Source of the DNA: Arcobacter aquimarinus
GTDB lineage: Bacteria; Campylobacterota; Campylobacteria; Campylobacterales; Arcobacteraceae
Direction: 5' to 3'
Length of the DNA: 64,000 nt
Assembly: GCF_013177635.1 (NCBI RefSeq)
Contig: NZ_CP030944.1
Span: forward strand, 1,302,001-1,366,000
Shown: one piece after another, positions 36,258 through 55,054 of the stretch
Position numbering within the stretch: the first letter of the stretch is position 1
How the letters are laid out: each line of letters opens with the position of its first letter
Program-made: the position numbers and the translations under genes
Notes under the pieces: model-generated
Seen by the model: the letters and a program-made list of their open reading frames with translations, nothing else
Database searches by the model: none
Told to the model about the DNA's origin: nothing

Positions 36258-37052
36258 ATGACAAAAAAATTTGCAATATTTGGAAATCCTGTTATTCACT
36301 CAAAATCACCACAAATGCAAAATGCGGGATTGAAACATATAAATTTTGATGGAATTTATGAAAAACATCATTTAGAAAATGGTAATGAAATAAAAGAAAT
36401 TTTTTTAAAAAACAATTATAAAGGTGCTAATATTACAGTTCCTCACAAAGAATTTGCCTATGAAAATGCAGATGATGTAAGAGGAATAGCAAAAGAAATA
36501 AAAGCTGTAAATACTTATATTTTAGAAAAGGGAAAAGTAATAGCCTATAATACAGATGCACCAGGATTTTTAAAAGCAATTGAAAGTTTCGGAACTATTA
36601 AAAATGTACTTTTACTTGGTGCTGGTGGAACAGCAAAAGCTATTGCTTTAGCGCTAAAATCAAAAAATATAAAAGTAACTGTATTAAATAGAAGTGAAAA
36701 TAAGCTAGATTTTTTTAAAGAAAATACAATTAATTGTTTTTCTTGGGAAAATTTCAAACCTGAAATTTATGATTTAGTAGTAAACTCAACAAGTGCAGGA
36801 TTAAAAGATGAATATTTGCCCGCTCCAAAAGAGATGCTTGAAAATATATTTAAAAATGCTTCTTTTGCTTTTGATTGTATTTATGGAAAAATTACACCTT
36901 TTTTAGCTCTTGCGAGTGAAAATGATTGCAAAATAAAAGATGGGGAAGATATGCTTTTATATCAAGGTGTCCTTGCATTTGAACTTTTTACTAATACAAA
37001 AGCCGATAATTCAGTAGTTGAAATGATGAGAAAAGGCTTAAAAGAAGAATAA
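36258..37052 (+). CDS. aroE: Shikimate dehydrogenase, 3' end supplied by an integrated element
   Basis: A 264-residue NADP-dependent shikimate dehydrogenase of the aromatic amino-acid pathway. It has the NP(V)IHSKSP block (about 9-17), the catalytic Lys in NITVPHKEFAYE (about 57-68), the cofactor motif LGAGGTAKAIALAL (about 118-131) and the C-terminal DMLLYQGVLAFELF. The last 107 bases have a diverged copy at 54,948-55,054. Thus, an element integrated in the gene end and replaced its final codons, leaving a complete, apparently functional enzyme. Confidence 0.95.
   Translation: MTKKFAIFGNPVIHSKSPQMQNAGLKHINFDGIYEKHHLENGNEIKEIFLKNNYKGANITVPHKEFAYENADDVRGIAKEIKAVNTYILEKGKVIAYNTDAPGFLKAIESFGTIKNVLLLGAGGTAKAIALALKSKNIKVTVLNRSENKLDFFKENTINCFSWENFKPEIYDLVVNSTSAGLKDEYLPAPKEMLENIFKNASFAFDCIYGKITPFLALASENDCKIKDGEDMLLYQGVLAFELFTNTKADNSVVEMMRKGLKEE
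36999..37017. repeat. attL core of the aroE element
   Basis: AAAGCCGATAATTCAGTAG, 19 bases, is identical at 55,001-55,019. It is the longest exact match within the 107-bp aroE-end homology and thus the best candidate for the crossover region. It encodes the KADNSV segment of AroE. Confidence 0.75.
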
Positions 37053-37066
37053 AATATTCTTCTTTT
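37040..37066. terminator. Terminator after aroE, supplied by the element
   Basis: A perfect 12-bp inverted repeat (AAAAGAAGAATA/TATTCTTCTTTT, loop AAA) spans the aroE stop codon and runs into TTTTCT. It may also stop leftward transcription from the element less efficiently. The displaced chromosomal terminator is at 55,049-55,084. Confidence 0.75.
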
Positions 37067-37083: not shown

Positions 37084-37341
37084 TCACAACACTGTTTTAA
37101 TACATTTTTCTGATTTTAATAGTTGAAATTCAACTACTTTATGAACAGGATAATATATATTTTTACCTCTTCCCTCAATATATTCTGGACAATCAAAACC
37201 TGATTTACGTCTTTCATCTAAAGTTCTCGTGCTTATAGCTAATACTTCTGCAACCTGAGCAGAAGTTAATATTAAGCCATATTTTACAATCAAAGCATTT
37301 ATCATTACATCATATAGTTTTTCTTTATCTATATTTTTCAT
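37084..37341 (-). CDS. HTH protein, possible excisionase (AlpA/MerR-like)
   Basis: An 85-residue protein with a helix-turn-helix at about residues 24-50 (LTSAQVAEVLAISTRTLDERR in outline) and the following wing GRGKNIYYPVHKVVEF, the pattern of the HTH_17/AlpA-type family used as excisionases and element regulators. It is translationally coupled to the helicase gene (overlap ATGA) and is the element gene nearest to attL, which suits an excisionase. Confidence 0.7.
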   Translation of the reverse strand: MKNIDKEKLYDVMINALIVKYGLILTSAQVAEVLAISTRTLDERRKSGFDCPEYIEGRGKNIYYPVHKVVEFQLLKSEKCIKTVL

Positions 37342-38750
37342 ATTGAAACTCCTGATTTAGACTTATCAGAGTTATCTTGACTATCTAGAAGTTCAAAAAC
37401 CAACTTATTGTTTTGATTAGCTATTCTCGTTGCCTTCCAATACCTATTTTTTCCATTCTGTATAATTTTATTTGCCTTATCTTTATTAAATCCTGCATTA
37501 GTAAGATATTTTAAAATATCGCTATAAATAGGCTTATCTTCCTCATTTGTAATAAAATTAATAATTAATTCCCTAATTTCTAACTCTTCTTTTGTCTCTA
37601 ATGCATAATCAATATCTACTTTTATAAGTGTATTATCCTGATTATATGTAAAAGCTATATAGTTAGATATATTATTTCTATCCTTAATAGGCATAAAAAT
37701 ATATGTTTGTTTATCTTCATTTTTCCTAAGCTCAAAGGCAAGTGATATATCTTCCATAAACGCACTACTACCTGCAAATGCTGAGTTAAATTCCTTGTTT
37801 AGTTTATTTTGATGATGAAGAAACAATATTGAAGAATTATTCCTACGAAGAATTTTTAATACATTCATAAAATCACTTACATCTTTATGATTATTTCTAT
37901 CACCTATTATAAAATTCTTAATAGAATCAAAAACAATTAAAAAATCTGTTAAGTCTTTCTTTTTTAATTCAGAAATTATTTGAACTAAATTTGAACTTGA
38001 TAGTTCAACAAAATAATTTAATTTACTACCAAATTTTTCTTTTAGCAAATGAATATTTCTAGTTTTTATTGTAAGTTCAGAATTGTCCCCGTCAAGATAC
38101 ATAACTCTTTTGATTTTTCCTTCATATAAAAACATATTACATAAGGCTATAGAAATCAGAGATTTTCCAATACCGGGTCTTGAAACTATCATTGTAATAT
38201 CATTTTTTATAATGAAATTATCGTAAAGATATTCGATTTTTTTATCTTTTATTTTTTGAATATCTAAATCTAAACTACTAATTAATTTTTCAAATTTATC
38301 ATCTATTTGTCTCAAATCTTTTTTATTTTCAATATTTTCAAGCTTCTCTTTAATATCTTGTAACTCATTAATTTTTGAGAAATTACCTTCTTTGATTTTT
38401 GCAGCTACAATCATCATTTGTCTTTCGTAACTGTACTTTTTCAATTGCTTCAAATAATCCGTAATTGATGTAAGAGGAGTTGTTGTAATAATATCGATGT
38501 AATATTGTTCATTAATATTTTGTTGATTTGATAAAAAAACTGTATTCTCATTAATCTTTTTATCATTCTTATACATCTCAATTATGGTATTATATATAAC
38601 TCCATGTTGTTGATAATAGAAATCATTTTGTTCTATTATTTTTAAACTTTCATCAATTTTATCAAAACTATTATCAGCAATAAGTGTACTTAATATGGCT
38701 CTTTCAATACCAAGTAAGCACTCTACACTATACTTTATGTTATAATCCAT
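37338..38750 (-). CDS. DnaB/RepA-like hexameric helicase of the element
   Basis: A 470-residue protein. The N-terminal 110 residues resemble the DnaB N-domain (LLGIERAILSTLI, then FYYQQHGVIYNTI). The C-terminal RecA-fold ATPase has Walker A SRPGIGKS (about 190-197) and Walker B FLIVFDS (about 271-277), then a LFLHHQNK motif as in RepA of plasmid RSF1010 and AAA_25 proteins. It probably unwinds the excised circle during autonomous replication or transfer. No separate primase is visible. A palindrome at 38,787-38,818 is upstream. Confidence 0.82.
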   Translation of the reverse strand: MDYNIKYSVECLLGIERAILSTLIADNSFDKIDESLKIIEQNDFYYQQHGVIYNTIIEMYKNDKKINENTVFLSNQQNINEQYYIDIITTTPLTSITDYLKQLKKYSYERQMMIVAAKIKEGNFSKINELQDIKEKLENIENKKDLRQIDDKFEKLISSLDLDIQKIKDKKIEYLYDNFIIKNDITMIVSRPGIGKSLISIALCNMFLYEGKIKRVMYLDGDNSELTIKTRNIHLLKEKFGSKLNYFVELSSSNLVQIISELKKKDLTDFLIVFDSIKNFIIGDRNNHKDVSDFMNVLKILRRNNSSILFLHHQNKLNKEFNSAFAGSSAFMEDISLAFELRKNEDKQTYIFMPIKDRNNISNYIAFTYNQDNTLIKVDIDYALETKEELEIRELIINFITNEEDKPIYSDILKYLTNAGFNKDKANKIIQNGKNRYWKATRIANQNNKLVFELLDSQDNSDKSKSGVSI

Positions 38751-39073: not shown

Positions 39074-40318
39074 CTATTTTTGATTGTTTAAATCAATTGT
39101 CATTAAAGAACCATCATCCCAAGTTGGGTCATATATAATTTCTTCTAATTCTTCAATTTCTTCTTCATCATTTTCAATTTGTTTACGGTAGCATAAGTCT
39201 TCTAATCTTCCTATTTCATTTTTCATTTGTATAATTTCATTATTTAATTCTTTATTTTTTGCATAAATATCTTTTAAATCATCAAAACCTTTTTTTAAAT
39301 CATCAATAAATAATGATAAATTAGCATTTTCATCTCTATAAGATTTAAAATGTTTTGCAAAGAATCTTAATTTATCTATTATTGTATTTTGCTCTACCAT
39401 TTTTTTTACATTTTCAGCATCTTTTCTAATATAAGCATTAATAAGTTCTTTATATGGCATAAAATTATCACTATCTTTATATTTTTTTTCACTAAAAACT
39501 AATGAATTTAGTTCATTAATTCTTATTTCAAATAATTTATTTTTCAGTATTAAATCATCATTTTGTTTTTGAAGTAAATTTATTTGAGAATTTAATTTTT
39601 TATCTTCAAGTACTTCATTTTTAATTAATTGATTTCTAATAGCTTCTTGTTTTTGTTTTTCTCTAAACACTCTATGATGTTCATGTTTTCTTTCATTAAT
39701 TTTTACGAGGTTACCATCTATATATACTTCTTTATAAGTAGCTTCTTTTCCTCTTTCAATATTAGGTATATAATTTTTTGAAATCTCAAAAATATCATCT
39801 TGTAGTTTTTTTAAATAATCTCTTTTCCAATTTCTTCTAACCATAACTCCATTATTATTTACATTAGCAAAAAGAAAGTGAGCATGACGATTAATTACTT
39901 CTTTTCTATTTTCTTCATGACCTTCATGATTATGATAAGCCCAATGTAATATTTTTGTATTATTATCTATTTCAAATTTTTTTATAAAATCATTAAGTAT
40001 ATTAATTATATTTTCTTGAGTAGCTTGAACATGACTTCCAATCACTATTAATCCCTCTTCAACAATTATTGCATTACTTTTTAATGTTCTTTTACTTAAT
40101 GGATTATTTTTATATCTAGCTTTTGCTTCTTCTTGCCATTTTTCCCAGATATTATCTATTTCTTCTTTATCATTAAACTTAATACTTTGTATAATATTTT
40201 TACCATCATTAAGCCAATATGTAGCTCGGTTTATTCCAGAGTTATGTGCAAGATTTAAAGTTGTTGGAATTTTATATAACTTTGGTTTTCTAATAATTAC
40301 TGCATTTATATTTGCCAT
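39074..40318 (-). CDS. mob: MobV-like relaxase / plasmid mobilization protein
   Basis: A 414-residue protein. The N-terminal 190 residues follow the MobV/Pre pattern: LKSNAIIVEEGLIVIGS, then HWAYHNHEGHEENRKEVINRHAHFLF in outline with an HxH pair (RHAHF, about 142-146), and then the closing IERGKEA. The HxH pair would bind the metal of a His-hydrophobe-His relaxase. Residues about 235-400 are coiled coil, as in MobV proteins, ending acidic. It nicks oriT to start transfer. Candidate oriT palindromes lie just upstream (40,334-40,368 and 40,683-40,723). Start supported by GAGGTG before the ATG. Confidence 0.75.
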   Translation of the reverse strand: MANINAVIIRKPKLYKIPTTLNLAHNSGINRATYWLNDGKNIIQSIKFNDKEEIDNIWEKWQEEAKARYKNNPLSKRTLKSNAIIVEEGLIVIGSHVQATQENIINILNDFIKKFEIDNNTKILHWAYHNHEGHEENRKEVINRHAHFLFANVNNNGVMVRRNWKRDYLKKLQDDIFEISKNYIPNIERGKEATYKEVYIDGNLVKINERKHEHHRVFREKQKQEAIRNQLIKNEVLEDKKLNSQINLLQKQNDDLILKNKLFEIRINELNSLVFSEKKYKDSDNFMPYKELINAYIRKDAENVKKMVEQNTIIDKLRFFAKHFKSYRDENANLSLFIDDLKKGFDDLKDIYAKNKELNNEIIQMKNEIGRLEDLCYRKQIENDEEEIEELEEIIYDPTWDDGSLMTIDLNNQK

Positions 40319-40333
40319 ATTTCACCTCTTAAA

Positions 40334-40368
40334 ATTATCGCTGAATGAGTTACTCATTCATCAATAAT
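40334..40368. repeat. Nested palindrome, copy 1 (candidate oriT/operator)
   Basis: TGAATGAGT-T-ACTCATTCA is a perfect 9-bp inverted repeat around one base, flanked by ATTATCG and an imperfect CAATAAT. It is 16 bases upstream of the relaxase ATG. It is a reversed copy of the palindromes at 40,683 and 44,885. The gap 40,319-40,991 otherwise holds no gene. Confidence 0.65.
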
Positions 40369-40642
40369 ATTAGTTATTTTTATAATTATGCCATCAATAA
40401 AATACTAAATCAAGGGGATTTTATAAGTTATTTTCATATGTTTATTTTTATTAATACAAATAAATACAATAGAATCTAATGTACTACAAAAAGAAAATAT
40501 AAAAATTTTAAAAATATTGTTTTTTTAGATATTTAAGTTAGAAGATTTTTCATTAAAAATCAATAATTGGTGTTAAATCTTTTTAAAAGTATAGAATTAT
40601 TTTGAATTGATATTGTAAAATTTAATGTCAATATTTACTTTT

Positions 40643-40735
40643 ATTTTTGTAAAATGTCCTCAACTTATGATTATATGCAAATATAATTATCGACGATTGA
40701 GTAACTCATTCAGCGATAATTATTTAAAGTTTGAA
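40643..40735. repeat. 93-bp direct repeat, left copy
   Basis: This segment matches 44,845-44,937 at 87 of 93 positions without gaps. It contains a 41-bp nested palindrome at 40,683-40,723: outer stem ATAATTATCG/CGATAATTAT and inner stem TGAGT/ACTCA. Together the two copies bracket the nuclease/solenoid gene pair, with 4,202 bp from repeat to repeat. Confidence 0.85.
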
Positions 40736-40991
40736 ACAAAATATTAATTATATAATATTTATATTACTTAACTTTAGCACATAAAACCAAGCGATTTTCC
40801 AGTCTCATCTCTTAATACATCAATATCAAAACAAAATGATGTAATTTTTACTGTTTATGTTTTCTTAAAAAAAGATTTTAACATATAAAATTACTGGAAT
40901 AGATTTCGTTTAGATTCAATTTCACCCTCTTTATTGAACGAAATTTCTTAATATTAATTTTTCCTAGTTTAATATATACCTCTTAATTTTA

Positions 40992-42668
40992 TTAATTTGC
41001 TTTTATGTTCCAAAATTGAGGAAATAATGGCATTCTAAAATGTCTACATGAAATTAGTATTAAAGGTGTCATACTATGTTTAACACAAAGTAAACTTTGA
41101 ATATCTATATAATTTTCACTTTTTTGTACTTCTTCCATTAATTTTGAATAATCTTTTATTTTCTTAGGAATTTTAATAGGTGCTTCTGCATAACCACATT
41201 CAAAACCTGCATTAGTAGAAAACATAAAATCTTCAACTCTTTCATCTGGATACCAAATTTGTAAAGTAGCTTTTTTAAATATATCCTCTGAAATTTGTTG
41301 AATATCTTTATAATTTTCTATTAAACCTAATTTAACGCACCATTGAGCTAAAATAGGAATTAGAGTTGATGTTTTAACATAATCATTTTTATCAAAGCTA
41401 TTTCTTAAGTTAATATCTACTAAATCATCAAAGTTATCCGTATCAATTGGAAAATATTTTCCATTAATATTGAATGCAAAATCTATATGTGTTATTAAAT
41501 CACTTATCCATTCATCTACAAATTTAATTTCATTCCACTCATGTAATAAAAATATAGCTAATGATATGTCAATTATGTGTTCGTCATATAATGGATTTAA
41601 TAATGCTTTATGATTTTTAATAAATTCTTTTATTAAAAGAGCAATAGATGCTGAATATTTTACATATTCAGCATTATTATTTATTATCGCGGTAAACTGA
41701 AATAGATTTCCTAATAGGGCTAATATTCCAAGTTGCTCGAATAGGATTAAACTTTCTTGAATAAAATCATTGCCATAAAAAGACATCCCATTTTTTATTT
41801 TAATCAATGGTTGAAGCTTTTCACAATATTTTGAAATTATTTCAAGATTTTTATAATAAATTTTTCCAATTATTTCAGTTAGCTTTTTATTCTCTGTAAG
41901 TTTATTTTTTGAAAGAAATTCCCATATATTCAATAAGGTTCTTTCAGATGCAAGTAGAGCATGTTTTAAATTATCTTCAGAGTCTGCCCATCTGTAAATT
42001 ATATTTAGTGATAAATATATTAATCTAAGTGTTTTTAATTGTTTTTTTTCTGATTGTTTTTCTAACTTTGAGTTATTAATAATTTCATTAAGGTACGAAT
42101 AGTAATCTCTTAAGTCATAATCAATGTCATTTAATAAAGCAAGTGTTTTTCTAAATTTACTTCTTAATTCTTTAGGTATTAGATGTTCATTAAATAAATT
42201 TTCTTCAATAAGTATTGAAAGTTCATCTCCACCCCAGAAAGCAAATTCAATTTCATTATCTACACTATGTCTTTTAGTGTAACCACTCCAATTTTGTTGA
42301 ACATTCTGATTTAAGTCTCCTCCTGTGGCAACTACAATTTTTTTTGGTAGAGAAAGATATTTCTTTTCTAAATGAGTGGGGATATATACATCTAATATTT
42401 CATCTAAAGAAGGTCTTACTGCTTGATTTGAACCTCCATCCCAATCAGCTCTTGATAAATTACCTTCTTTTATAGTAAATAAAAATACTTTTTCTATGCC
42501 ATCTGCATCTTTTCCAATTGAAGTAACATCAACTCCATATTGTCTTGTACCTACTTGAGCTTTACTAATAGTTTTATGATTCATTGATAGTAAAAGTTCA
42601 GGGATTAAATCATCAAGTTCTTTAGACTCTTTTAATAAAGATAAATATTCTTTTATAACTAGCTTCAT
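40992..42668 (-). CDS. Putative PD-(D/E)XK nuclease-domain protein of a two-gene cassette
   Basis: A 558-residue protein. Residues about 28-170 read like a restriction-endonuclease fold: a helix, then AQVGTRQYGVDVTS with candidate Asp D47, then FLFTIKEGN with candidate Lys K67, as in Mrr-like or VSR-like nucleases where GxD and xxK are catalytic. The rest (about 180-540) is helical with several Trp, Cys and a ECGYAEAPIK segment and matches nothing I know. It overlaps the upstream solenoid gene by four bases (ATGA), so they act as a pair. Anti-phage defence is suggested by neighbours, not proven. Confidence 0.6.
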   Translation of the reverse strand: MKLVIKEYLSLLKESKELDDLIPELLLSMNHKTISKAQVGTRQYGVDVTSIGKDADGIEKVFLFTIKEGNLSRADWDGGSNQAVRPSLDEILDVYIPTHLEKKYLSLPKKIVVATGGDLNQNVQQNWSGYTKRHSVDNEIEFAFWGGDELSILIEENLFNEHLIPKELRSKFRKTLALLNDIDYDLRDYYSYLNEIINNSKLEKQSEKKQLKTLRLIYLSLNIIYRWADSEDNLKHALLASERTLLNIWEFLSKNKLTENKKLTEIIGKIYYKNLEIISKYCEKLQPLIKIKNGMSFYGNDFIQESLILFEQLGILALLGNLFQFTAIINNNAEYVKYSASIALLIKEFIKNHKALLNPLYDEHIIDISLAIFLLHEWNEIKFVDEWISDLITHIDFAFNINGKYFPIDTDNFDDLVDINLRNSFDKNDYVKTSTLIPILAQWCVKLGLIENYKDIQQISEDIFKKATLQIWYPDERVEDFMFSTNAGFECGYAEAPIKIPKKIKDYSKLMEEVQKSENYIDIQSLLCVKHSMTPLILISCRHFRMPLFPQFWNIKAN

Positions 42669-44362
42669 GCATTTTCCTTTTTAGCTAGCCTAAAATGATA
42701 CTTTTCTATTGATTTATGAATTGGGTGAGCTCGTTCAGATGTTGGAATTGTCATATAAGTTGATATTTTCTGCATTTGTGTTGGTTTTGTGTATTTATTA
42801 TTATAATTAGAAAAATTTCCTTTCCCATACTTAATTAATATTTTGGTTGTTAATTGAGAAAATAAACTTTTTTCTTGAGCTTTATCCATTGCTTTTCTTA
42901 TTGAATCAGTATTTGCTTTATGGATTTCTCTTGACTCTATTGTTGAGGGTTGTAATTCTTTTAATCTTTTAAGTTTTTTTCTTGATTCATTTATAGATTC
43001 TAAATGTTTAATAACAGTAGTACAGACTACTCTCATATTTTTATTTAATTTCTTATCTTTTATGCTTTTAAAATATTCTAAAGTTTCATGAGGATAATCG
43101 TCACCAATATAATTAATAAAAACTTCATTAATTAAGTTAATATCATTTTTATTTATATCTTTCTTTTCTAAAATTGATAAAATTAAAGATTTTTGTTCTT
43201 CAAATTGATATAAGTATCCTAAAATCTTTCTACAAATAAATAGTAAGTCTTTATATGAAAGTGTATCTAGAATATCCTTATCTAGTATCACATTAGAAGA
43301 TATAAAATGATGCAAAATTAAATGTAATTTTATATTTTCATTATTTAATATATAGGTAATAAATCTATTTAGAAGAATAGGATATTTTCTTGATAATTCA
43401 TTAATAAAAAAATCTAGTTTTTCCTCTGGAAAATTTGATGAAATATCGCTATTTTCTAACCATAAAATAAAAAAATCTTGAATTAATTCGATTGAATTAG
43501 TTTCTTCTAAAATATGATTAAAAGCAAATGCTATATTTTGAATTGTGCCTAATTCTTTTGATTTTGTATTTTTTAATAAAAATAGACATTCTTTATACCA
43601 ATCTTCTTTTATAAATTCTTTTTTATTAAACATTAGAATTTTTGAAATATGATACCTTGTATTATCATTTTCAAATTGACTACTTTTTACTAATATATTT
43701 TTAAAAGCTGGATAAGTGTCTTTTAAATAGTTACTTGTATATATAATAAGATAATTAAATTCAAGATTTTCTTTTTTTATTATATTTTCAAATAATAGAT
43801 ACATTTCTTCTGATTCTTGTTCATTTATATTTAATTTATCAATAACATTAATTGCACTTTTTGTCCTTATAATATTCTCTGTATTAGCTAAAAAAGATTT
43901 TATATGAGCATATTGATTTATATTATGGATATTATGTAATGAAACTATTGTAGTAGAGATATGAAAAGTAACGTATTCTCTATTTATTAAATATAGTGTG
44001 TCTAAAAAATCTCTTGCAAAATCTTTATTATTATCACAAATGATTTTTGTTATGTTATATTGACTTCCCCCAGCCAAATCACCTTGCATTTGATTATATA
44101 ATATTTCATAAAATGATAGGATATTAGATTTATTTAATATAGATAAGTGAGCAACTTTTTCTAATGCATGAGTTAATAAAAATATATTTTGACCATCATT
44201 AATTGCAGATATTGCTATTTCAAAATAGTCTATTTCTATTTCATTTTTAACTTCTGTACATAAATCTACTAATTCAGTTTCATTTCTAATATCAAAAAGT
44301 AGCCTATAGAATTCTTTTGGAGAATTCAATACTTTTAATAATTCAATTTTCTTCTTAGACAT
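42665..44362 (-). CDS. Large helical-solenoid protein, partner of the putative nuclease
   Basis: A 565-residue protein, almost entirely predicted helix, with repeated pairs of amphipathic helices of about 35-45 residues, as in HEAT/ARM-like solenoids. The C-terminal 100 residues (about 465-565) are basic and differ in character (SREIHKANTDSIRKAMDKA, then a Tyr/Asn/Lys-rich tail). It has no enzymatic motif. It is translated ahead of the nuclease gene and coupled to it. A sensor or adaptor for the nuclease would be consistent, but function is unknown. Confidence 0.6.
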   Translation of the reverse strand: MSKKKIELLKVLNSPKEFYRLLFDIRNETELVDLCTEVKNEIEIDYFEIAISAINDGQNIFLLTHALEKVAHLSILNKSNILSFYEILYNQMQGDLAGGSQYNITKIICDNNKDFARDFLDTLYLINREYVTFHISTTIVSLHNIHNINQYAHIKSFLANTENIIRTKSAINVIDKLNINEQESEEMYLLFENIIKKENLEFNYLIIYTSNYLKDTYPAFKNILVKSSQFENDNTRYHISKILMFNKKEFIKEDWYKECLFLLKNTKSKELGTIQNIAFAFNHILEETNSIELIQDFFILWLENSDISSNFPEEKLDFFINELSRKYPILLNRFITYILNNENIKLHLILHHFISSNVILDKDILDTLSYKDLLFICRKILGYLYQFEEQKSLILSILEKKDINKNDINLINEVFINYIGDDYPHETLEYFKSIKDKKLNKNMRVVCTTVIKHLESINESRKKLKRLKELQPSTIESREIHKANTDSIRKAMDKAQEKSLFSQLTTKILIKYGKGNFSNYNNKYTKPTQMQKISTYMTIPTSERAHPIHKSIEKYHFRLAKKENA

Positions 44363-44844
44363 TTTTTCACTTTATAAATTTTATAATTATTATTAGAATA
44401 GCATAAAATTGGTTGTTTAGTTTTAAATATATAATATTATTATAAAAATTCTCAAAAGCTAAAACTTAAAACAAATAAAATAATATATTTTATGTATTTA
44501 CTAAAACACCTAATGAAATAACTTTTTTTATCTTCTTTTAAAAATTTAGTTTCAATCTTTATACTCACTAACTTAGAATTTTAATTTAATCAAATATAAA
44601 ATTAATTTTATAATTTTTTGGAATTGATCAAAAGTTTTTTCTTTGTCCATAAAGTTCCATATTTTTATCATGAAGAATCAAATTTTTTCCAAGCTTGTAA
44701 AATCAATCATTTGAACTTTGATTTAGAATTATAAAGAAAAGTATGATTCTCTTAATTTCACTTTCATAGCTATTAAATTACCTTGAAATCATTTTAATAA
44801 GATAAAAGTGTGTAGTAAGATTATTCTTCTACACACTTATTATA

Positions 44845-44937
44845 ATTTTTGTAAAATATCCTCAATTTATGCTTATATGTAAATATAATTATCGACGATT
44901 GAGTAACTCATTCAGCGATAATTATTCAAAATTTGAA
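44845..44937. repeat. 93-bp direct repeat, right copy
   Basis: Right-hand partner of 40,643-40,735 (87 of 93 identical), with the same 41-bp palindrome at 44,885-44,925. It ends 19 bases before the hsdR stop codon. The gap 44,363-44,955 holds no gene and is otherwise plain AT-rich sequence. Confidence 0.85.
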
Positions 44938-44955: not shown

Positions 44956-47802
44956 TTACTTTTCATAAAATTTCTCAACAAATCCAACGATTTTATCTAA
45001 TACTCTTGGAATGATTTTTTTTCTTTCTAAGAATTTTGGTTTTTCTTTTAGTGTTTTTGCTACATCATTTGCAAGAGGTATTCTTTCATCATAAAGATAT
45101 GTATCAATAACTTTTTTTAGTTCAATATTATCAAGATTTTCTTCTATACATAGTTCATTAAATGCTTTTTCTTTTTCTTCATCCCAGAATTTTTCAAACT
45201 CTTGTTCTATATCATCATTATTTTCTATTTTTAGAAGATTATCATTAATAAATCTTTCAATAAGTTCTCTTTTACTTCTTAGTTGTGGATTATTATTTAA
45301 AATATTTGAAATATTCTCTTTTTGTTTTGTTCTTATGTCTTCATCTTCAGTCTCTTTATATGCAGATAAAAGTTTTAAGATATAAGTTACATTTATTTCA
45401 TCTTTATGAATAAGTTCAAGTTCAAAGTCTACATCTTCTAAAATAGATACTTTTTCAGTACCTTCTCTTTTTCCAATAGTGTTTTTAATTTGTTCATATA
45501 AGTCAAGATATTTTGATTTATAGTCTTCAAATTCTTGTTCATTCATAGATAAATCAGACCATTTAAAATCTGTAAATCCTTCTAAAATATTTTTTAGTTT
45601 TAATAACTCTCTAAATGCTTTAACAAACTCTAATTTTTTATCTTCATTATCTAATTCATTCACACTATTAACAGTTGGAACAATAATTTTTAAAGCATCA
45701 TATTTTTCATTAAATTTTTGTACATAATCATCATATGGTTCCATAAGAATAATCTCTTTTGCATCTTTATTTGAAAAAAGTGCAATTGCATCATCTGTTG
45801 CTTGTTTTAAATTTCTAAAACAAACTATATTTCCTTGAGATTTTTGTTCATTTAAAATTCTATTAGTTCTTGAAAATGCTTGAATTAATCCGTGATATTT
45901 TAGGTTTTTATCCACATAAAGGGTATTTAGTGTTTTACTATCAAATCCAGTTAAAAACATATTTACTACAAGTAGTATATCTATCTCTTTTTGTTTAACT
46001 CTTTTTGAAATATCGTTATAATAGTTATAGAAACTTTGAGAATCTTTGGTTGAGTATTTACATCCAAACATTTTATTATAATCTTCAATAAACTCATCTA
46101 GTTTTTCTCTTGAGTGTTTATTTATATGCTCTTCATCAATAAATGCACCTTCTGATTCTTCTAAATCAATTATTCCAGTTGCATCTTTATCATCTTCATT
46201 TGCACCATATGAAAAAATTGTTGCAATTTTTAGATTATGATTTCTACTTTTAAAAGCTTCATAATATTTAATAAGCATATCAACGCCACTTACACACATC
46301 ATAGCTGTAAACTCTTTAGAATGAGTTTTACGACCATGATTAGCTAAAATGTAATCAACTATCTTTTCAAGTCTTTCTTGGCTTTCTAGTAGCTCTTTTG
46401 TATCAATAGCTTCAACTTCTATATCAATATTTGTTGCACTTCCACTTTTTTCTTTATATCTTCCAATATATTCAACTGAAAATTTTAAAACATTATCATC
46501 ATTAATAGCATCAGTAATTACATATTTATGTAAACAATCTTCAAATAGCTCTTTTGTGGTTCTTTTACCAAGTTTATTTCCAGTTGCATTATCTACAAAT
46601 ATTGGAGTTCCTGTAAAACCTATCATTTGATTATTAGTAAAAAACCTTGTGATGTTAAGATGAGTTTCACCAAATTGGCTTCTATGACACTCATCAAAGA
46701 TAAACACAATACTTTTATCTTTGATTTTTTCCATTTTTTCAAGATATTGTTTTTTTGAAATGGCTGTATTTAATTTTTGAATAGTAGTTACAATTAATTT
46801 TGTATCATCTGAAAATTGTTTTACAAGAGTTTTTGTATTATCAGTTCCATCTACACTTCCATCACTAAAACTATTAAACTCTTTTGTAGTTTGATAATCT
46901 AAATCTTTTCTATCTACAACAAACACAACTTTATAAACATTAGGTAATTTCATTAAAATTTGTGCTGTTTTAAAAGAGGTTAAAGTTTTTCCTGAACCTG
47001 TTGTATGCCAAATATATCCATTTTTATTTGAGTTTGAAACTCTATCTATTATGGCTTCAACTGCCCAAAACTGATAAGGTCTTAGAACCATTAAGATTTT
47101 TGGAACTTCAGCTAAAACAATATATTTACAAATCATTTTAGATAAATGGCATCTTTCTAAAAAAGTATCTGTAAACTCTTCAAGATTAGTGATATTTTTA
47201 TTGTTTTTATCAGCCCAAAAGAATGTTTGTTTAAAATTCATAGACTCTAATTTACTATTTGCATAATATTTTGTATTAACACCATTTGAGATAACAAATA
47301 GTTGAATATATGCAAATAAAGCGTTATTTGCACTATAAGAGTGTCTTTTATATCTAAGAGTTTGATTAAAAGCTTCTTTTAGTTCTAATCCTCTTCTTTT
47401 AAGTTCAATCTGACAAAGAGGTAAACCATTTATTAAAATAGTTACATCATATCTATTTTTATAAACTCCCTCAACAGTTACTTGAGAAGTTACTTGAAAA
47501 AGATTTTGGCACCAATGTTCACTATCTAAGAATTCAATATATTTACTAGTTCCATCATCACAGGGCAAAACAAATTTATCTCTTAATATTTTTGCTTTTT
47601 CAAAAACATTACCTTTATTTAAATGATTTAGAACTCTTTTAAATTCTGTATCTGTAAGAGTTGTTTTATTATGCTTTTCTAGTTGAGTTTTTAGGTTTTT
47701 TTCTAAATCTTTATCATCTTTTATAATAACTCTTTCATACTTTTGTAATTCAAGTTGTTTTAATAGATTTTCTTCTAGTATTGCTTCGCTTTGTTTGCTC
47801 AT
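44956..47802 (-). CDS. hsdR: Type I restriction enzyme R subunit (HsdR)
   Basis: A 948-residue translocating restriction subunit. The N-terminal nuclease domain has the PD-ExK arrangement with D119, E133 and K135 in the segments RYDVTILI and QIELKRR. The SF2 motor has Walker A TTGSGKT (about 266-272), the DECHRS box (about 370-375) and GFTGTP. The helical C-terminal domain binds the methylase core. It is intact. It is the last gene of the leftward locus and is separated from fic by the oppositely oriented antitoxin ORF. Confidence 0.95.
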   Translation of the reverse strand: MSKQSEAILEENLLKQLELQKYERVIIKDDKDLEKNLKTQLEKHNKTTLTDTEFKRVLNHLNKGNVFEKAKILRDKFVLPCDDGTSKYIEFLDSEHWCQNLFQVTSQVTVEGVYKNRYDVTILINGLPLCQIELKRRGLELKEAFNQTLRYKRHSYSANNALFAYIQLFVISNGVNTKYYANSKLESMNFKQTFFWADKNNKNITNLEEFTDTFLERCHLSKMICKYIVLAEVPKILMVLRPYQFWAVEAIIDRVSNSNKNGYIWHTTGSGKTLTSFKTAQILMKLPNVYKVVFVVDRKDLDYQTTKEFNSFSDGSVDGTDNTKTLVKQFSDDTKLIVTTIQKLNTAISKKQYLEKMEKIKDKSIVFIFDECHRSQFGETHLNITRFFTNNQMIGFTGTPIFVDNATGNKLGKRTTKELFEDCLHKYVITDAINDDNVLKFSVEYIGRYKEKSGSATNIDIEVEAIDTKELLESQERLEKIVDYILANHGRKTHSKEFTAMMCVSGVDMLIKYYEAFKSRNHNLKIATIFSYGANEDDKDATGIIDLEESEGAFIDEEHINKHSREKLDEFIEDYNKMFGCKYSTKDSQSFYNYYNDISKRVKQKEIDILLVVNMFLTGFDSKTLNTLYVDKNLKYHGLIQAFSRTNRILNEQKSQGNIVCFRNLKQATDDAIALFSNKDAKEIILMEPYDDYVQKFNEKYDALKIIVPTVNSVNELDNEDKKLEFVKAFRELLKLKNILEGFTDFKWSDLSMNEQEFEDYKSKYLDLYEQIKNTIGKREGTEKVSILEDVDFELELIHKDEINVTYILKLLSAYKETEDEDIRTKQKENISNILNNNPQLRSKRELIERFINDNLLKIENNDDIEQEFEKFWDEEKEKAFNELCIEENLDNIELKKVIDTYLYDERIPLANDVAKTLKEKPKFLERKKIIPRVLDKIVGFVEKFYEK

Positions 47803-47851
47803 TTAATTGCCTTAAAAGTTTATTATTTCGTGTTTTTTAATCATTTTATGT

Positions 47852-47857
47852 TATAAT
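47852..47857 (+). promoter_or_regulatory. -10 element for the Fic-antitoxin ORF
   Basis: TATAAT in the context ATGTTATAATCTGG lies 28 bases before the ATG at 47,886. No -35 match is evident, as is usual in this group. The ribosome site TTAAGGA at 47,872-47,878 follows. It is inside the leader of hsdR on the opposite strand. Confidence 0.65.
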
Positions 47858-47885
47858 CTGGTTCTAAATTATTAAGGATTTTTTT

Positions 47886-48041
47886 ATGAAAAAAACCATT
47901 GCAAATACCAACAAACATTTTTCCACTGCTTCTAAAAAGAAAAAAATGATTATAAATTCTGTTCATAGTTCTGCAAAAGTTGAAGGTTCTAAAATCACAA
48001 AAAAAGAACTTAGTGAACATTATAAACTTATTCATTCATAA
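47886..48041 (+). CDS. Candidate Fic antitoxin (class I, VbhA-type)
   Basis: A 51-residue basic protein. Residues 29-34 (SAKVEG) match the inhibitory helix motif [S/T]xxxE[G/N], in which the Glu blocks ATP gamma-phosphate binding in Fic enzymes, and the context SSAKVEGSKIT fits inhibitory helices. It has its own TATAAT and ribosome site (TTAAGGA). It is tail-to-tail with fic, overlapping its end by 14 bases. The Fic protein itself lacks this motif, so a separate antitoxin is expected. Known pairs are usually co-directional, so this arrangement is unusual. Confidence 0.75.
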   Translation: MKKTIANTNKHFSTASKKKKMIINSVHSSAKVEGSKITKKELSEHYKLIHS

Positions 48042-48822
48042 GTTCCTCTTCTATTTTTGCTTTAAGTAATTCTTTCATAGGTTCATAATCACAATTATAT
48101 CCTTCATGTACTCTTTGAATATAATTATCACTTCTTTTAAGTTTAAGTCCAATCATTGGAAAACCATTTTTAGCTAAGATTATATCGCAGATTAAACGAC
48201 TTAATCTACCATTACCTTCTCTGAATGGATGAATAAATAAAAAATCGCTAATAAGTTTTGATAAATCATCTGTTATCATATCTATATCATCATATTCTTT
48301 TTTACTGACTTCTTGTAAAAACTTATCAAAATCTGGTAAACCTTTTAAAAAATCAATTCTCCATTCCCAAGCTTCACTTCCTGTTCCTTTACTCATAGAA
48401 ACAGTTCTCAATTCACCTGCAAATGGATAAATAGTATCAAATACCATTTTATGCCATTGTTTAATAGTTTTAAATTCAATTGTTTTTGATATATCAAAAT
48501 TTTCTACAAGATAACTATATACTTCAAGAAGTTTAAAATCTTCTTGTTTTGTGATATAAATATCATCAGTAGATTTTAGATAGTTGATACATATTCCATT
48601 TTTAGTGATTATTCTTTGAATATCGCTTGAATACCATTCTAACCAAGGATTTTTTATAACCTTATTTTCTTCTAAAATATCTACTTCTAAATTTATATTG
48701 TCAAGTATATGTTTTGGTGGTTTTTTTTCATTAAAGTATTTATTATCAGTTTCATACCAATATGTATATTTACCTTTGGTATTTAGTTTTAAAGAATATA
48801 ATAAATATTTTGTTTTTGTCAT
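48028..48822 (-). CDS. fic: Fic domain protein (likely AMP-transferase toxin)
   Basis: A 264-residue protein. The active-site motif is HPFREGNGR at residues 198-206, matching HPFx(D/E)GN(G/K)R, so AMPylation of a target protein is likely. The Fic core (about 110-225) includes the flap region around FAGELRTVSMSKG. I see no inhibitory [S/T]xxxE[G/N] helix at either end, so it is a class I toxin in need of a separate antitoxin (47,886-48,041). Residues 1-100 are an extra domain I do not recognise. It overlaps the upstream gene by four bases and sits in the type I restriction locus. Confidence 0.9.
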   Translation of the reverse strand: MTKTKYLLYSLKLNTKGKYTYWYETDNKYFNEKKPPKHILDNINLEVDILEENKVIKNPWLEWYSSDIQRIITKNGICINYLKSTDDIYITKQEDFKLLEVYSYLVENFDISKTIEFKTIKQWHKMVFDTIYPFAGELRTVSMSKGTGSEAWEWRIDFLKGLPDFDKFLQEVSKKEYDDIDMITDDLSKLISDFLFIHPFREGNGRLSRLICDIILAKNGFPMIGLKLKRSDNYIQRVHEGYNCDYEPMKELLKAKIEEELMNE

Positions 48823-49721
48823 TTAATTTCCATACAAGTAGACTTTTTAAATTCTTCAACCAAATCGGGCCTATTTTTTTTGATAACTTCATCAAATATT
48901 GTTTGAATAAAAGGTGCAACCCAATATTCTGAATTTTTTGGAGGAGTTTCTCCCATATCCAGATAATCTATATGGTCACTTGCCATCATATAATTATCTT
49001 TTATTGTAAATAACCAAATAAAATGCAAAATAAATATATTCTTAATATCTATTGATAATTGTTCTAAAAATTTTGTTCTATTATTACCAAAATCTGCCAT
49101 TTCATTATCATTATAAAACATATATTTAAAGTAATTATAATGTGTATGGTCATTTAGTCTTATTCTCATTTTTTTATAATATTCACCTCTAAACATTAAA
49201 TTATTTATAGTTTTTAGTTGTCTTGAATTTCTTATATAACTATTCATAACTTTATAGTCTGGTAGTTTTTCCTTATTTGTAACCCAATTATTAATCTTCT
49301 CAACAATAAAATTATTTAAACTATGATTATCTTCTAAATACAATAGTGCATAAATATTGATTACAACATTGTCATAATATTTTCTTGTTAAAGAGAAAGC
49401 ATCATTTATTTTGCCATGTTCTAATATGAGTTTTATAGATTCCAATGTTCCTTTCATTGAAGAAAATATGTAATTATCAAAATTGATAATTCCTTTAACT
49501 CCCATAGTAAACCAAGAAAAAGTTGAAAAGCCAAGTGAGTTATAAAAATCTGAATATTTTTCTAATTCACTAAATATTTTATGTTCTTTATACTCTTTTG
49601 TTAAAGTACAATTTATCTTTTTTGACATATTTTCAATTTCTTCTTCTGACATATCACTTATTTTTTTTGAAAAACTTTCCATATATTGAACTTTTTCCCT
49701 AAATTTATTTATTCTCTTCAT
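48819..49721 (-). CDS. Unknown protein within the restriction locus
   Basis: A 300-residue helical soluble protein rich in Asn, Tyr and aromatic residues, without a recognised motif. It resembles in outline the DUF-type abortive infection-like or HEPN-like helical proteins (NDAFSLTRKYYDNVVINIYALLYLEDN region, RxxxN/H-type residues around 113-124), but I see no clear RxxxxH motif, so I make no such call. It overlaps its neighbours on both sides by 4-17 bases, so it is an integral part of the hsdM-hsdS-orf-orf-fic operon. Confidence 0.6.
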   Translation of the reverse strand: MKRINKFREKVQYMESFSKKISDMSEEEIENMSKKINCTLTKEYKEHKIFSELEKYSDFYNSLGFSTFSWFTMGVKGIINFDNYIFSSMKGTLESIKLILEHGKINDAFSLTRKYYDNVVINIYALLYLEDNHSLNNFIVEKINNWVTNKEKLPDYKVMNSYIRNSRQLKTINNLMFRGEYYKKMRIRLNDHTHYNYFKYMFYNDNEMADFGNNRTKFLEQLSIDIKNIFILHFIWLFTIKDNYMMASDHIDYLDMGETPPKNSEYWVAPFIQTIFDEVIKKNRPDLVEEFKKSTCMEIK

Positions 49722-50421
49722 CTATTATTTGTTGATAAGGTTCATAGTTCTTATTTACAATTTCTATCAAAGAATCTTGTAATTTCTTAATATTATTTAA
49801 GATTTCAAGATTGAAATCTTTTCTTGATTTTGCATTAATTTCAGGTATTTTACCAATAAAATTATCTGGTAATTTTGATATAAATAAATCAATTTCACCA
49901 TTAAACATAATTGCTTTCATTTGAATATTTTCTAATTTTATTACATCTTCAGGATTTAAATATACCAATGATTCTTTATCATATATTTTACTGAGTATTT
50001 CTTCATATTTCTTTTGAGTTCTTATTAATTGATATTTCTCAATTGTTGATTCCCCTGTATATATTTTTCCTATATAATCTTGCATATTTTTTAAAATATT
50101 AAGATATGAAATTAATATGTGTAAATTTGTTTTTATATCTTTAACTTTTTTGTCGTGATAATCTATCTCTTTATCTCTAATGTTAATTTTTAATGCAAAT
50201 ATAGCAATCAAAATTGATATTAATACAATGAAAGGAGGATATAAGCTTGTATTTTTAATATTACATAATATTGTTGCAAATAACAATATTATTAAAATAA
50301 TATCTATTAGGAGTACAAAATTAATAATTCTTTTTATTTGTTTTTTCGAAGTAGTGTTTTTTTCAACAATATCCACTAGATTTATGAATTTTTCAAAATA
50401 TTTCCACATATAATTCCTCAC
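49705..50421 (-). CDS. Membrane protein within the restriction locus
   Basis: A 238-residue protein. Two membrane helices (about 31-53 and 60-79) close to the N-terminus are followed by a cytosolic helical domain with probable coiled coil (about 82-235). The GTG start overlaps the hsdS stop (GTGA), and an in-frame ATG four codons later is possible. The architecture of two helices plus a long helical cytosolic region is common in membrane effectors of defence systems, but no family is recognised. Confidence 0.6.
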   Translation of the reverse strand: MRNYMWKYFEKFINLVDIVEKNTTSKKQIKRIINFVLLIDIILIILLFATILCNIKNTSLYPPFIVLISILIAIFALKINIRDKEIDYHDKKVKDIKTNLHILISYLNILKNMQDYIGKIYTGESTIEKYQLIRTQKKYEEILSKIYDKESLVYLNPEDVIKLENIQMKAIMFNGEIDLFISKLPDNFIGKIPEINAKSRKDFNLEILNNIKKLQDSLIEIVNKNYEPYQQIIDEENK

Positions 50422-51614
50422 ACAAACATCTGCTGTAAAAGTGCTTTTTTAAACTCTTTTGATGATTCTAATTGTTTTTGAGTTTGTTCTATTTTTGTAT
50501 CTATTGAAGATAAAAAGTTTGCTATTTTTGTTTGTTCTTCAACACAAGGAATAAGCATTTTAATATTTTTTAACTCATTAAATGAAAGAACAGTTTGAGA
50601 AGTACCAACACTATATTTTCCAATAAAATGTTTGTTTTTATTTAACAAAGTTACCATAAATCTATTATCTGCATTTTTACATTCAAATACAGGATAATAA
50701 GTACTTATAATACCTATATATCCTAATGTATTTATGTTAAAAGTAAAAGTTCTATTATCACTTCTTGAACGATATGTTATAAAGTTACTAGGTACTATAT
50801 TAAAACCTATGTTATCTCTTTCCGTAAGTCTATTTTCTCCAAAGTAATCACTTTGTAGCATTAATCCTTTGTTAGATGAAGTTAATACTGGATATTCATT
50901 TTCAAAAGTAGATTTATTTTTGTATTCAATTAAATATTTACTTAATTTTTCTTTTTTCCACTCACAAAACTCACTCCCATCATCAGCTTTAAACCTAATC
51001 TCTTGATTAAAGATTTTTTGCATTACACCTTTTTTGTATTGTTGTAAAAGTTCTTCTTTTTTTGTAAGTTGTTCTATTCTTGTATCAACAGAAGTTAAGA
51101 ATGAAGCTATTTTTTCTTGTTCTTGTTTTAATGGTAAAAAGAAATTAAAGTTTCCTATTTGCTCTAAACTAAGATTTGGTTGAGCACCAACACTAAGATT
51201 TTTATAAATATATTTTTTCATTCTTCGAGACTGTAAAACAAATAAAATATAATTTAGATAATCTTTGTTTTTTAATCTAATTATTGATAAAGCTTGGTTC
51301 GTATTTGCAGGTAATATATTTTTTGTTACAACAGCAACTTTACCTAATGAACCAGCAATAGCAAAAAGAATATCTTGTTCTTTTAATATAGACCTTTTCA
51401 ATTCTTTACTATGTGTATTTTCATCAATAAATAGACATTTATCTTTATTTATAGAAAGATTATTTATACCCTCAATTTTAACAAATGTTATACCTGAATT
51501 AGAAAACTTTTTTGGAGTTGTTCCTTTAGTAATTAATTCTGATAATTTTTTTAAATTATTTTCTTCCCACTCCCCACTAAACTCTTTAAATCTTAACTTA
51601 GGTACATTACTCAT
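50418..51614 (-). CDS. hsdS: Type I restriction specificity subunit (HsdS)
   Basis: A 398-residue DNA-recognition subunit with two target recognition domains (about 1-150 and 210-345). Each is followed by a conserved helical repeat: EKIASFLTSVDTRIEQL (about 161-177) and TKIANFLSSIDTKIEQ (about 360-375). The two halves set the two parts of the bipartite target. It is intact, so the locus should be functional. It lies nine bases after hsdM. Confidence 0.94.
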   Translation of the reverse strand: MSNVPKLRFKEFSGEWEENNLKKLSELITKGTTPKKFSNSGITFVKIEGINNLSINKDKCLFIDENTHSKELKRSILKEQDILFAIAGSLGKVAVVTKNILPANTNQALSIIRLKNKDYLNYILFVLQSRRMKKYIYKNLSVGAQPNLSLEQIGNFNFFLPLKQEQEKIASFLTSVDTRIEQLTKKEELLQQYKKGVMQKIFNQEIRFKADDGSEFCEWKKEKLSKYLIEYKNKSTFENEYPVLTSSNKGLMLQSDYFGENRLTERDNIGFNIVPSNFITYRSRSDNRTFTFNINTLGYIGIISTYYPVFECKNADNRFMVTLLNKNKHFIGKYSVGTSQTVLSFNELKNIKMLIPCVEEQTKIANFLSSIDTKIEQTQKQLESSKEFKKALLQQMFV

Positions 51615-51623
51615 AATAAAATC

Positions 51624-53656: not shown

Positions 53657-54763
53657 TTAAAAAGTCATAAAACTTTTAATCAAATTATCCACATGTTTCT
53701 CTCCACTACTCTTACTTAACTTAGCATATCTCATAGTGGCATTTATATCATTATGATTCATAAGTTTTTTAATTGTAAGTATTGGCGTTTCATTTATTGC
53801 TAATTGACTTGCAAATGTATGTCTTAAAGTATGTATAGTTACTTTATCTAAACTTTCTGTTCCTTCTGGATTAAAAAGAATATCAAAAATAGGTTGTAAT
53901 TTTCTATAATAATATTGATTTGAATAACTCTGTTTACCTGTATTTTTAAAAATATAATCATCTTTATTTTTTCCAGAATCAATAATAAATTTTTCAATTT
54001 CAGACTTTAATTTTATACTTAAAAATCCATAGTATTCACTATCATTTTTAAAATCATAAAGTCTAATAGAACAATTATCTTTTAAATCAGATGGTTTTAT
54101 ATTACAAATAGTTTGAAGTCTTCCACCTGTAGATAAACCAATCATTACAAAATAATATAGAGATCTATCATTTTCAATAGTTGCTAGTAATTTTTTTATT
54201 TCATCTAATTCAAGATATCTTAATCTTGCATTATCAACTTTTATTTTTTTAACTATTTTACAAGGATTTTTATCTACAATTTCATTTTCAATTGCCCAAT
54301 TAAATATAGAACCTATTTGATCAATAATAAAATTTACTGTTGCAGGCATCAATTCTTTTCCAATATTTAATTGTAAATCTTCTATATCAGCTTTGGTAAT
54401 TGTTTTAATTGCTTTAGATCCAATATAATGCTCTTTTATCCTATTTTCGACTCTTGACTTAGTTTTTTTATTTTGTTTATTGTGAATAGCTTTATAATCA
54501 TAAAATTGATTTGCAATATCTAAAAAAGTTTGTGATTCTTTTTTTAACGCAAAATGAGGTAGTTCTTCTCCTAGTCGAAGTTTTGAGGTAATTTCATTTC
54601 TTTTTTGGAAACAATAAGCTTCTCTTATTCCCTCACTATGAAGTCCTATTTTCCTCCATACATCTTTTTTATTTTCTTTATATGTAATATAATAAGATTT
54701 ATCCCCATTTTGAAGTTCTTGAGAATAAACTCCAGTATATTTTTTAGATTTTTGTCTAGCCAT
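53657..54763 (-). CDS. int: Tyrosine recombinase (integrase of the aroE element)
   Basis: A 368-residue integrase. An N-terminal arm-binding-like domain (about 1-60, GVYSQELQNGDKSYYITYK) precedes the core-binding domain and the catalytic domain. It has the catalytic Arg in STGGRLQTI (about 211-219), HTLRHTFAS (about 320-328), LMNHNDINATMRY with the nucleophilic Tyr at its end (about 353). The layout is that of P4-like/Campylobacterota integrases. The gene is 184 bases from the aroE remnant, near attR, as expected. Confidence 0.93.
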   Translation of the reverse strand: MARQKSKKYTGVYSQELQNGDKSYYITYKENKKDVWRKIGLHSEGIREAYCFQKRNEITSKLRLGEELPHFALKKESQTFLDIANQFYDYKAIHNKQNKKTKSRVENRIKEHYIGSKAIKTITKADIEDLQLNIGKELMPATVNFIIDQIGSIFNWAIENEIVDKNPCKIVKKIKVDNARLRYLELDEIKKLLATIENDRSLYYFVMIGLSTGGRLQTICNIKPSDLKDNCSIRLYDFKNDSEYYGFLSIKLKSEIEKFIIDSGKNKDDYIFKNTGKQSYSNQYYYRKLQPIFDILFNPEGTESLDKVTIHTLRHTFASQLAINETPILTIKKLMNHNDINATMRYAKLSKSSGEKHVDNLIKSFMTF

Positions 54764-54947: not shown

Positions 54948-55054
54948 AAGATATGCTTTTATTTCAAGGTGTTTTAGCTTTTGAATTATTTACGGGTCAT
55001 AAAGCCGATAATTCAGTAGAAGAAGCTATGAGAAAAGGTTTAAAACAAGGGTAG
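54948..55054 (+). pseudogene. aroE: Displaced 3' end of aroE
   Basis: These 107 bases align without gaps to the end of aroE (36,946-37,052) with 84 identities. In frame they encode KDMLLFQGVLAFELF and KADNSVEEAMRKGLKQG, a close relative of the AroE C-terminus, ending in TAG. There is no start codon. The terminator that follows at 55,049 suggests this is the original chromosomal end pushed away by the element. Confidence 0.93.
55001..55019. repeat. attR core of the aroE element
   Basis: AAAGCCGATAATTCAGTAG, identical to 36,999-37,017. The chromosome resumes to its right. Confidence 0.75.

What the first reader, a model, noticed from the sequence alone, without database searches (positions are those of the whole stretch)
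40643..44937. Two-gene nuclease/solenoid cassette bracketed by 93-bp direct repeats
Two coupled genes (putative PD-(D/E)XK nuclease, D47/K67; large HEAT-like protein) lie next to a type I restriction locus in a mobile element. The flanking repeats (87 of 93 identical) each contain the same 41-bp nested palindrome, and 4,202 bp separate them. One recombination would remove the pair cleanly. I recognise no described defence system with this composition, so it may be a new anti-phage or anti-plasmid module and the repeats may mark how such cargo enters the element.
Basis: partly seen in the sequence, partly recalled or inferred. Interest (0 to 1): 0.8.

Follow-up and report, generated by a model that had tools for sequence, protein, structure and literature searches.

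The report
Olokun defence genes between palindrome repeats
The two genes are the already known anti-phage system Olokun, but they sit between copies of a palindrome that probably is the DNA-transfer site of the mobile element carrying them, which hints at how such elements swap defence genes.

Summary
The 93-bp direct repeats (87/93 identical; 92/101 when extended) each hold the same 41-bp palindrome and bracket two overlapping genes. The claim of no known system is wrong: the genes are OloA and OloB of Olokun (PADLOC E 1e-61 and 6e-159), and OloB's D47/K67 are invariant in 8 of 8 aligned homologues.

The host is an 18.0-kb integrative element in the 3' end of aroE of an Aliarcobacter chromosome. 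The new part is the palindrome. A third copy, inverted, lies 14 bp upstream of a gene for a relaxase with a MobM-like (MOBV) predicted fold. The palindrome follows this relaxase: 2 of 104 family genomes and 2 of 397 class genomes carry it, exactly those with a strong relaxase match. In a second Aliarcobacter element (a MAG contig) two copies bracket a different module, a type IV Thoeris-like TIR-caspase operon, followed by a kinase gene.

Best reading: the palindrome is an oriT/RSA-like relaxase site whose extra copies border defence cargo, so Mob/Pre-type recombination could delete or acquire it. Recombination is inferred, not shown; insertion-sequence debris in the slot leaves ordinary rearrangement open.

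The parts
36946..37057 (+). attachment-site duplicate at the 3' end of aroE (aroE 36258-37052), left end of the element
   Evidence: imperfect direct repeat in register with 54948-55059, offset 18,002 bp
54948..55059 (+). second attachment-site duplicate, right end of the 18.0-kb element
53657..54763 (-). tyrosine integrase of the element
   Evidence: PF00589 E 3e-21
37084..37341 (-). small HTH protein (HTH_17; AlpA/Xis-like is my reading)
   Evidence: PF12728 E 3e-4, below the Pfam cut-off; weak PHROG excisionase match E 0.0085
37338..38750 (-). DnaB-like helicase/replication protein
   Evidence: PF00772 E 2e-13
39074..40318 (-). relaxase, MOBV-like by predicted fold
   Evidence: AlphaFold model of the N-terminal 230 aa (pTM 0.67); the top six VIA-align rows are MobM-oriT structures, best Z 12.1; a relative in G431 is in an operon with a TrwB-like coupling protein
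40333..40369 (-). palindrome site 1, inverted relative to sites 2 and 3, 14 bp upstream of the relaxase start
40635..40735 (+). direct repeat copy A; palindrome site 2 at 40685-40721
40765..40892 (.). debris: terminal piece of a multi-copy DDE-transposase IS (about 40765-40824) and a fragment similar to an RT-like gene (40824-40892)
40992..42668 (-). oloB, 558 aa; possible PD-(D/E)XK nuclease with D47 and K67 (motif by eye)
   Evidence: PADLOC OloB E 6e-159 over 1-554; D47/K67 invariant in 8 of 8
42665..44362 (-). oloA, 565 aa
   Evidence: PADLOC OloA E 1e-61 over 23-563
44837..44937 (+). direct repeat copy B; palindrome site 3 at 44887-44923
44956..53186 (-). type I restriction locus: hsdR 44956-47802, Fic 48028-48822, two small genes 48819-50421, hsdS 50418-51614, hsdM 51624-53186

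Best explanation
The gene pair is an Olokun anti-phage system carried as cargo of an integrative, probably mobilizable element in aroE. The repeated palindrome is the recognition site (oriT/RSA-like) of the element's own MOBV-like relaxase. Site 1 is the working origin upstream of the relaxase gene; sites 2 and 3 are extra copies at cargo borders. The relaxase probably nicks and rejoins these sites. Two sites on the same strand (2 and 3) could then be joined so that the 4.2-kb Olokun segment is lost, and the reverse, a circle or plasmid carrying a site plus cargo joining a resident site, would add a segment and leave exactly this structure. Shown: Olokun identity, element ends, three sites, association of site and relaxase, the same type of site at the border of a different defence module. 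Inferred: that the palindrome is the nicked origin, that recombination happens, and that it brought Olokun in.
For: Olokun. Element ends. Co-occurrence: relaxase in 2 of 104 family genomes, G000 and G016, half-site in the same 2 of 104; in 397 class genomes the degenerate site (up to 3 mismatches) only in G000 and G431, which are the only strong relaxase matches there (E 4e-252 and 2e-60). Leaving out the query genome, the chance of coincidence is 1/103 and 1/396. Dissociation: the ten other genomes with integrases 61-75% identical to this one have neither this relaxase nor the site by whole-genome search, and neither shows in the ten loci fetched (two of these, L068 and L070, are largely cut by contig ends). 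The 2 of 2 other Olokun genomes in the family lack the site. Second element (G016:C54): homologous DNA through the relaxase and site 1 (80%) breaks off at 40566, then only a 49-bp island with the border site is shared (96%), with TIR and caspase-like genes between the sites. Mob operons of relatives are preceded by a strong palindrome in 10 of 15 elements tested, against 15 of 126 control genes (Fisher P 9e-6; 1e-4 if three near-identical loci count once). Fold. Precedent: relaxases recombine short oriT cores and delete what lies between (PMC4902927); RSA lies upstream of pre and functions as the pT181 oriT (PMC5703833).
Against: No excision product, empty-site strain or nick site was seen. 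The held genomes are one per species, so presence/absence within a species could not be tested. Only two elements have border copies, and G016 is a MAG contig cut off inside the kinase gene. In G431 the single site lies after the coupling-protein gene, not upstream of the relaxase, and no strong palindrome lies upstream there. G016 site 1 is imperfect (69 of 200 shuffles as good; 8 of 200 fold as stably). Eight class genomes with weaker relaxase-like matches lack this site. The relaxase has no Pfam match above a cut-off, nor a meaningful NCBIfam or PHROG one, and Foldseek's MobM match is only E 6e-3. IS debris in the slot offers another route, and the 101-bp repeats are long enough for plain homologous recombination.
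Confidence: 0.5

Rival explanations
1. The palindrome is the relaxase site, but the duplication around Olokun is a passive by-product of homologous recombination between related elements or of IS-driven rearrangement. The sites mark past joins and the relaxase plays no part in moving cargo.
For: The repeats are 101 bp and 91% identical, enough for RecA-type recombination. The slot holds an IS end and an RT-like gene fragment; part of the oloA-site 3 gap resembles DNA downstream of a DDE-transposase gene in G010.
Against: In G016 only a 49-bp border site, not a long repeat, is shared with the window element and it borders unrelated cargo. All 9 mismatches avoid the palindrome.
Confidence: 0.3
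2. The palindrome is an operator for an element-encoded regulator (for instance relaxase autorepression) that tunes the relaxase and the defence operons.
For: Site 1 lies 14 bp upstream of the relaxase start. MobM binds its oriT region and represses its own gene (PMC5863519, passages).
Against: Site 3 is 525 bp upstream of the oloA start and the G431 site lies behind the operon. HTH_17 genes are also found in 5 site-free loci: L062, L063, L065, L069, L071.
Confidence: 0.1
3. The palindromes are transcription terminators between unrelated operons.
For: They fold as hairpins (5 of 6 sites with none of 200 shuffles as stable) and lie between genes.
Against: No T-run follows the window sites; the terminator scan of 40250-45000 calls none of the three (2 found, both elsewhere). 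The sequence itself, not just pairing, is conserved across genomes.
Confidence: 0.05
4. The sites belong to the integrase or to an unknown site-specific recombinase.
For: Paired sites around a segment look like recombinase sites.
Against: Ten other genomes with related integrases lack the site. Of the proteins seen, the relaxase is the only one found with the site in all three elements; the G016 contig is too short to show an integrase or HTH gene, and those genes also occur in site-free loci.
Confidence: 0.05

Closest known systems
Olokun (OloA-OloB) anti-phage system
   Same: Both genes match nearly end to end, adjacent and in order, in a mobile element with other defence genes.
   Different: Nothing tested sets it apart; only its setting between palindrome copies is unusual.
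Mob/Pre (MOBV) relaxases and RSA sites of pT181, pE194 and pMV158
   Same: MobM-like fold; palindrome just upstream of the relaxase gene; published Pre proteins recombine RSA sites, and RSA is the pT181 oriT (PMC5714925, PMC5703833; passages).
   Different: Here the site is a single near-perfect palindrome repeated at cargo borders of an integrated element; no match to Pfam Mob_Pre; recombination untested.
Relaxase/oriT recombination (Mob02281/pBMB0228; pWBG749 family)
   Same: A short oriT core suffices and DNA between two sites is deleted (PMC4902927; PMC4652767; passages).
   Different: The staphylococcal plasmids with two pWBG749-type oriT copies carry them on opposite strands; here sites 2 and 3 are on the same strand, predicted to be unstable.
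Integron gene cassettes with attC
   Same: Cargo modules ended by an imperfectly palindromic site next to the gene of a possible recombining enzyme.
   Different: The candidate enzyme is a relaxase, not an integron integrase (none was searched for by name); only one or two modules seen. Comparison from general knowledge.

Membership tests
Olokun | OloA homologue | tested here: met
   PADLOC PDLC03925, E 1.2e-61, profile 35-595 of 596
Olokun | OloB homologue | tested here: met
   PADLOC PDLC03926, E 6.1e-159, profile 1-551 of 556
Olokun | oloA directly followed by oloB | tested here: met
   4-bp overlap, same strand; same order in L072 and L073
Olokun | protection against phage | not testable with these tools
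   needs expression and plaque assays
MOBV (Mob_Pre) relaxase | MobM-type relaxase fold | tested here: met
   six MobM rows on top, Z 11.6-12.1, 165-172 residues aligned; next MobA of R1162 Z 10.5. Foldseek ranks MobM first but at E 6e-3, none under 1e-3; model pTM 0.67
MOBV (Mob_Pre) relaxase | match to the Pfam Mob_Pre family by sequence | tested here: not met
   no Mob_Pre match at E up to 1; therefore called MOBV-like only
MOBV (Mob_Pre) relaxase | histidine (HUH-type) metal motif | tested here: met
   H129, H145 and H147 invariant in 8 of 8; assignment as the metal motif is by eye
MOBV (Mob_Pre) relaxase | oriT with inverted repeats upstream of the relaxase gene | tested here: inconclusive
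   palindrome 14 bp upstream in the window; strong palindrome upstream in 10 of 15 elements tested; nick site unknown
Integrative mobilizable element | integrase with flanking att repeats, plus relaxase, without a mating-pair apparatus | tested here: met
   att repeats, integrase, relaxase by predicted fold; no conjugation gene among the 12 element proteins scanned
Integrative mobilizable element | transfer by a helper | not testable with these tools
   needs mating assays

The most novel reading that the evidence does not exclude
A relaxase with oriT-like palindromes acts as an integron-like cassette system for anti-phage genes: each defence module ends in a transfer-origin copy, and the element's relaxase joins, deletes and inverts modules at these sites.
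Probability: 0.25. Interest if true: 0.8.

Novelty: new variant of a known kind. Interest (0 to 1): 0.5.

Why it matters
How defence islands gain and lose modules is an open question. If an element's own transfer origin doubles as the border of its defence cargo, module turnover is tied to the transfer machinery and becomes testable in a simple two-site assay. It would also explain why unrelated defence modules occupy the same place in related elements. The gene pair itself adds only one more member of a known system.

Tried and rejected
A new defence system: rejected, Olokun. Genome-wide repeat: rejected, only three copies in the own genome. Integrase-owned site: rejected by the integrase-bearing genomes without it (one bare 9-base core match without matching arms in L065). 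Olokun-specific border: rejected, two other Olokun genomes lack it and long DNA homology to them ends at the genes. Terminator: not called. Nothing found: repeat in plasmids, relaxase in plasmids, relaxase or palindrome in viral contigs, a convincing relative of the relaxase by sequence in solved structures. Eight related loci were searched for long direct repeats: some repeats turned up (att repeats, repeats inside genes, one in L062 that I did not place), none like the window's pair around cargo. The first structure model, from two sequences, was poor (pLDDT 48) and not used. A 9-base core match at 19016 of L086 in another palindrome is probably chance. Literature searches for oriT copies bracketing cassettes or linked to defence systems listed no such report; only listings and some passages were seen, and the library is limited to open-licence papers. 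The original Olokun paper (Millman et al. 2022) was recalled, not seen.
Full report
What was claimed and what is there. The repeats exist as described: 87 of 93 bases identical at 40643-40735 and 44845-44937, extending to 92 of 101 at 40635-40735 and 44837-44937. Each holds the same 41-bp palindrome. The quoted 4,202 bp is the start-to-start distance; 4,109 bp lie between. All nine differences fall outside the 37-bp palindrome core (P 0.013). A third copy, inverted, lies at 40333-40369.

The genes. The proteins match PADLOC OloA (E 1.2e-61) and OloB (E 6.1e-159) over nearly their full length, so the pair is Olokun, a system listed as known in PMC10121019 (passages) and among those of unknown mechanism in PMC12926258 (passage). 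OloB has no Pfam match above a cut-off. Related OloB genes, all under 60% identical, are on 34 plasmid records.

The element. The 3' end of aroE is repeated, imperfectly, at 36946-37057 and 54948-55059, with an integrase at the right end, giving an 18.0-kb element. It carries a type I restriction locus with a Fic gene, Olokun, a relaxase-like gene, a DnaB-like gene and a small HTH gene. The genus is Aliarcobacter, taken from the record title of a same-genus match. At least two loci with related integrases, L063 and L069, show a repeat of the aroE 3' end too.

The relaxase. Sequence libraries do not recognise it or its two closest relatives, but its predicted N-terminal domain (8-sequence alignment, pTM 0.67) matches MobM-oriT structures best (Z 12.1, 170 residues, rmsd 3.8). 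Foldseek also ranks MobM first, with E 6e-3. A relative in G431, 45% identical over 234 residues, lies in an operon with a TrwB-like coupling protein gene. A more distant relative on a Prevotella plasmid passes the Pfam Relaxase cut-off; it was found with the G008 relative, which matches 180 plasmid records (one of them over at least 80% of its length).

Site and relaxase go together. Among 104 family genomes the relaxase (E up to 1e-5) is in G000 and G016 only, and the 22-base half-site with up to two mismatches is in the same two. Among 397 class genomes, which do not include G016, the degenerate 31-base pattern is in G000 and G431 only; the backward control pattern matched once, in G448. 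The relaxase profile matched 10 of 397 at E up to 1e-3: two strongly, G000 and G431, and eight weakly, all eight without the site. Leaving out the query genome, the coincidence has chance 1/103 and 1/396. The ten other genomes with integrases 61-75% identical have neither this relaxase nor the site by those whole-genome searches; the ten loci fetched around these integrases show none either, but L068 is only 5 kb and in L070 the element side is cut by the contig end. The other two Olokun genomes in the family (G067, OloB 89%; G045, 64%; 3 of 104 with the query) lack the site.

Second element with different cargo. G016:C54 (5,972 bp; same length as the MAG contig JAGOIF010000111.1) shares 80% identity with the window from 39464 to 40566, through the relaxase and site 1. 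Then homology ends, apart from 49 bp around the border site (96%). Between the two sites lie a ThsB-like TIR gene, a caspase-like gene and a third gene of unknown family; beyond the second site a protein kinase gene is cut by the contig end. TIR plus caspase-like protease is the make-up of type IV Thoeris (PMC12847820, passage). In both elements site 1 is inverted relative to the border site, and by eye the border sites of the two elements are more alike than site 1 and border site of one element.

Relatives. I tested 15 relaxase-family elements for a palindrome in the 150 bp upstream of the relaxase or of what I took as its operon's first gene (two start points were tried for G431, L091 and L112). 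Ten have one that at most 4 of 200 shuffles equal. Five further fetched loci with weak relaxase matches (L092-L096) were not in this test, and the seven plasmids in it are my choice among the 15 listed of 180. Three of the ten (L088-L090) are near-identical. Among 130 other genes 19 did; four of these are relaxase-family genes or the site itself, leaving 15 of 126. The 126 still hold a few relaxase genes whose own start has no strong palindrome. Fisher P is 9e-6, 4e-5 with all 19 of 130, and 1e-4 if L088-L090 count once. The G431 site is not upstream but 65 bp behind the coupling-protein gene.

Mechanism. Relaxases are known to join two oriT copies. Mob02281 needs a 24-bp core and removes the DNA between (PMC4902927, abstract and passages). 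Pre proteins form cointegrates at RSA sites independently of RecA (PMC5714925, passages), and RSA lies upstream of pre and functions as oriT (PMC5703833, passages). Staphylococcal plasmids with two oriT copies invariably carry them on opposite strands, and the authors suspect that deletion removed same-strand pairs (PMC4652767, passages). Sites 2 and 3 here are on the same strand, so an active relaxase should delete Olokun. Site binding, nicking and recombination are inferences.

Evidence for a messier history. Between site 2 and oloB lie the end of a multi-copy insertion sequence (about 40765-40824; DDE transposase) and a fragment similar to an RT-like gene (Pfam RVT_1 just below its cut-off in one of two relatives). 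Part of the gap between oloA and site 3 resembles DNA downstream of another DDE-transposase gene in G010. So IS activity or plain homologous recombination may have built the locus, and the sites may only mark where it happened.

Verdict. The gene pair is known. The repeated relaxase-linked palindrome at borders of unrelated defence modules is a new variant of relaxase-site recombination if the mechanism holds.

Noticed in passing
window 40765-40892: Remnants of a multi-copy DDE-transposase insertion sequence and of an RT-like gene between site 2 and oloB; full-length transposase genes of this IS occur in other Aliarcobacter genomes (for example L118:1525-2889).
   Followed up: partly
L062, L063, L065, L069 (aroE neighbourhoods): The aroE region recurs beside related integrases in Arcobacteraceae, with different large cargo genes each time.
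   Followed up: partly
L020:2276-4405: Type IV Thoeris-like operon (TIR, caspase-like) with a third gene of unknown family in an Aliarcobacter MAG.
   Followed up: partly
L087 (G008:C43): Contig with 146-bp identical ends, so probably a circular plasmid of 4,858 bp; a 44-bp perfect palindrome lies upstream of its relaxase operon.
   Followed up: yes
window 48028-50421: A Fic-domain gene, a gene with a weak, sub-threshold BanI-like match and a third small gene (49705-50421) sit between hsdR and hsdS.
   Followed up: no
window 28235-29125: A second tyrosine integrase gene to the left of the aroE element.
   Followed up: no
L088:10658-10697, L089:10803-10842, L090:9348-9387: The same 40-bp inverted repeat recurs between integrase and relaxase genes in three loci of two other genomes.
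   Followed up: no
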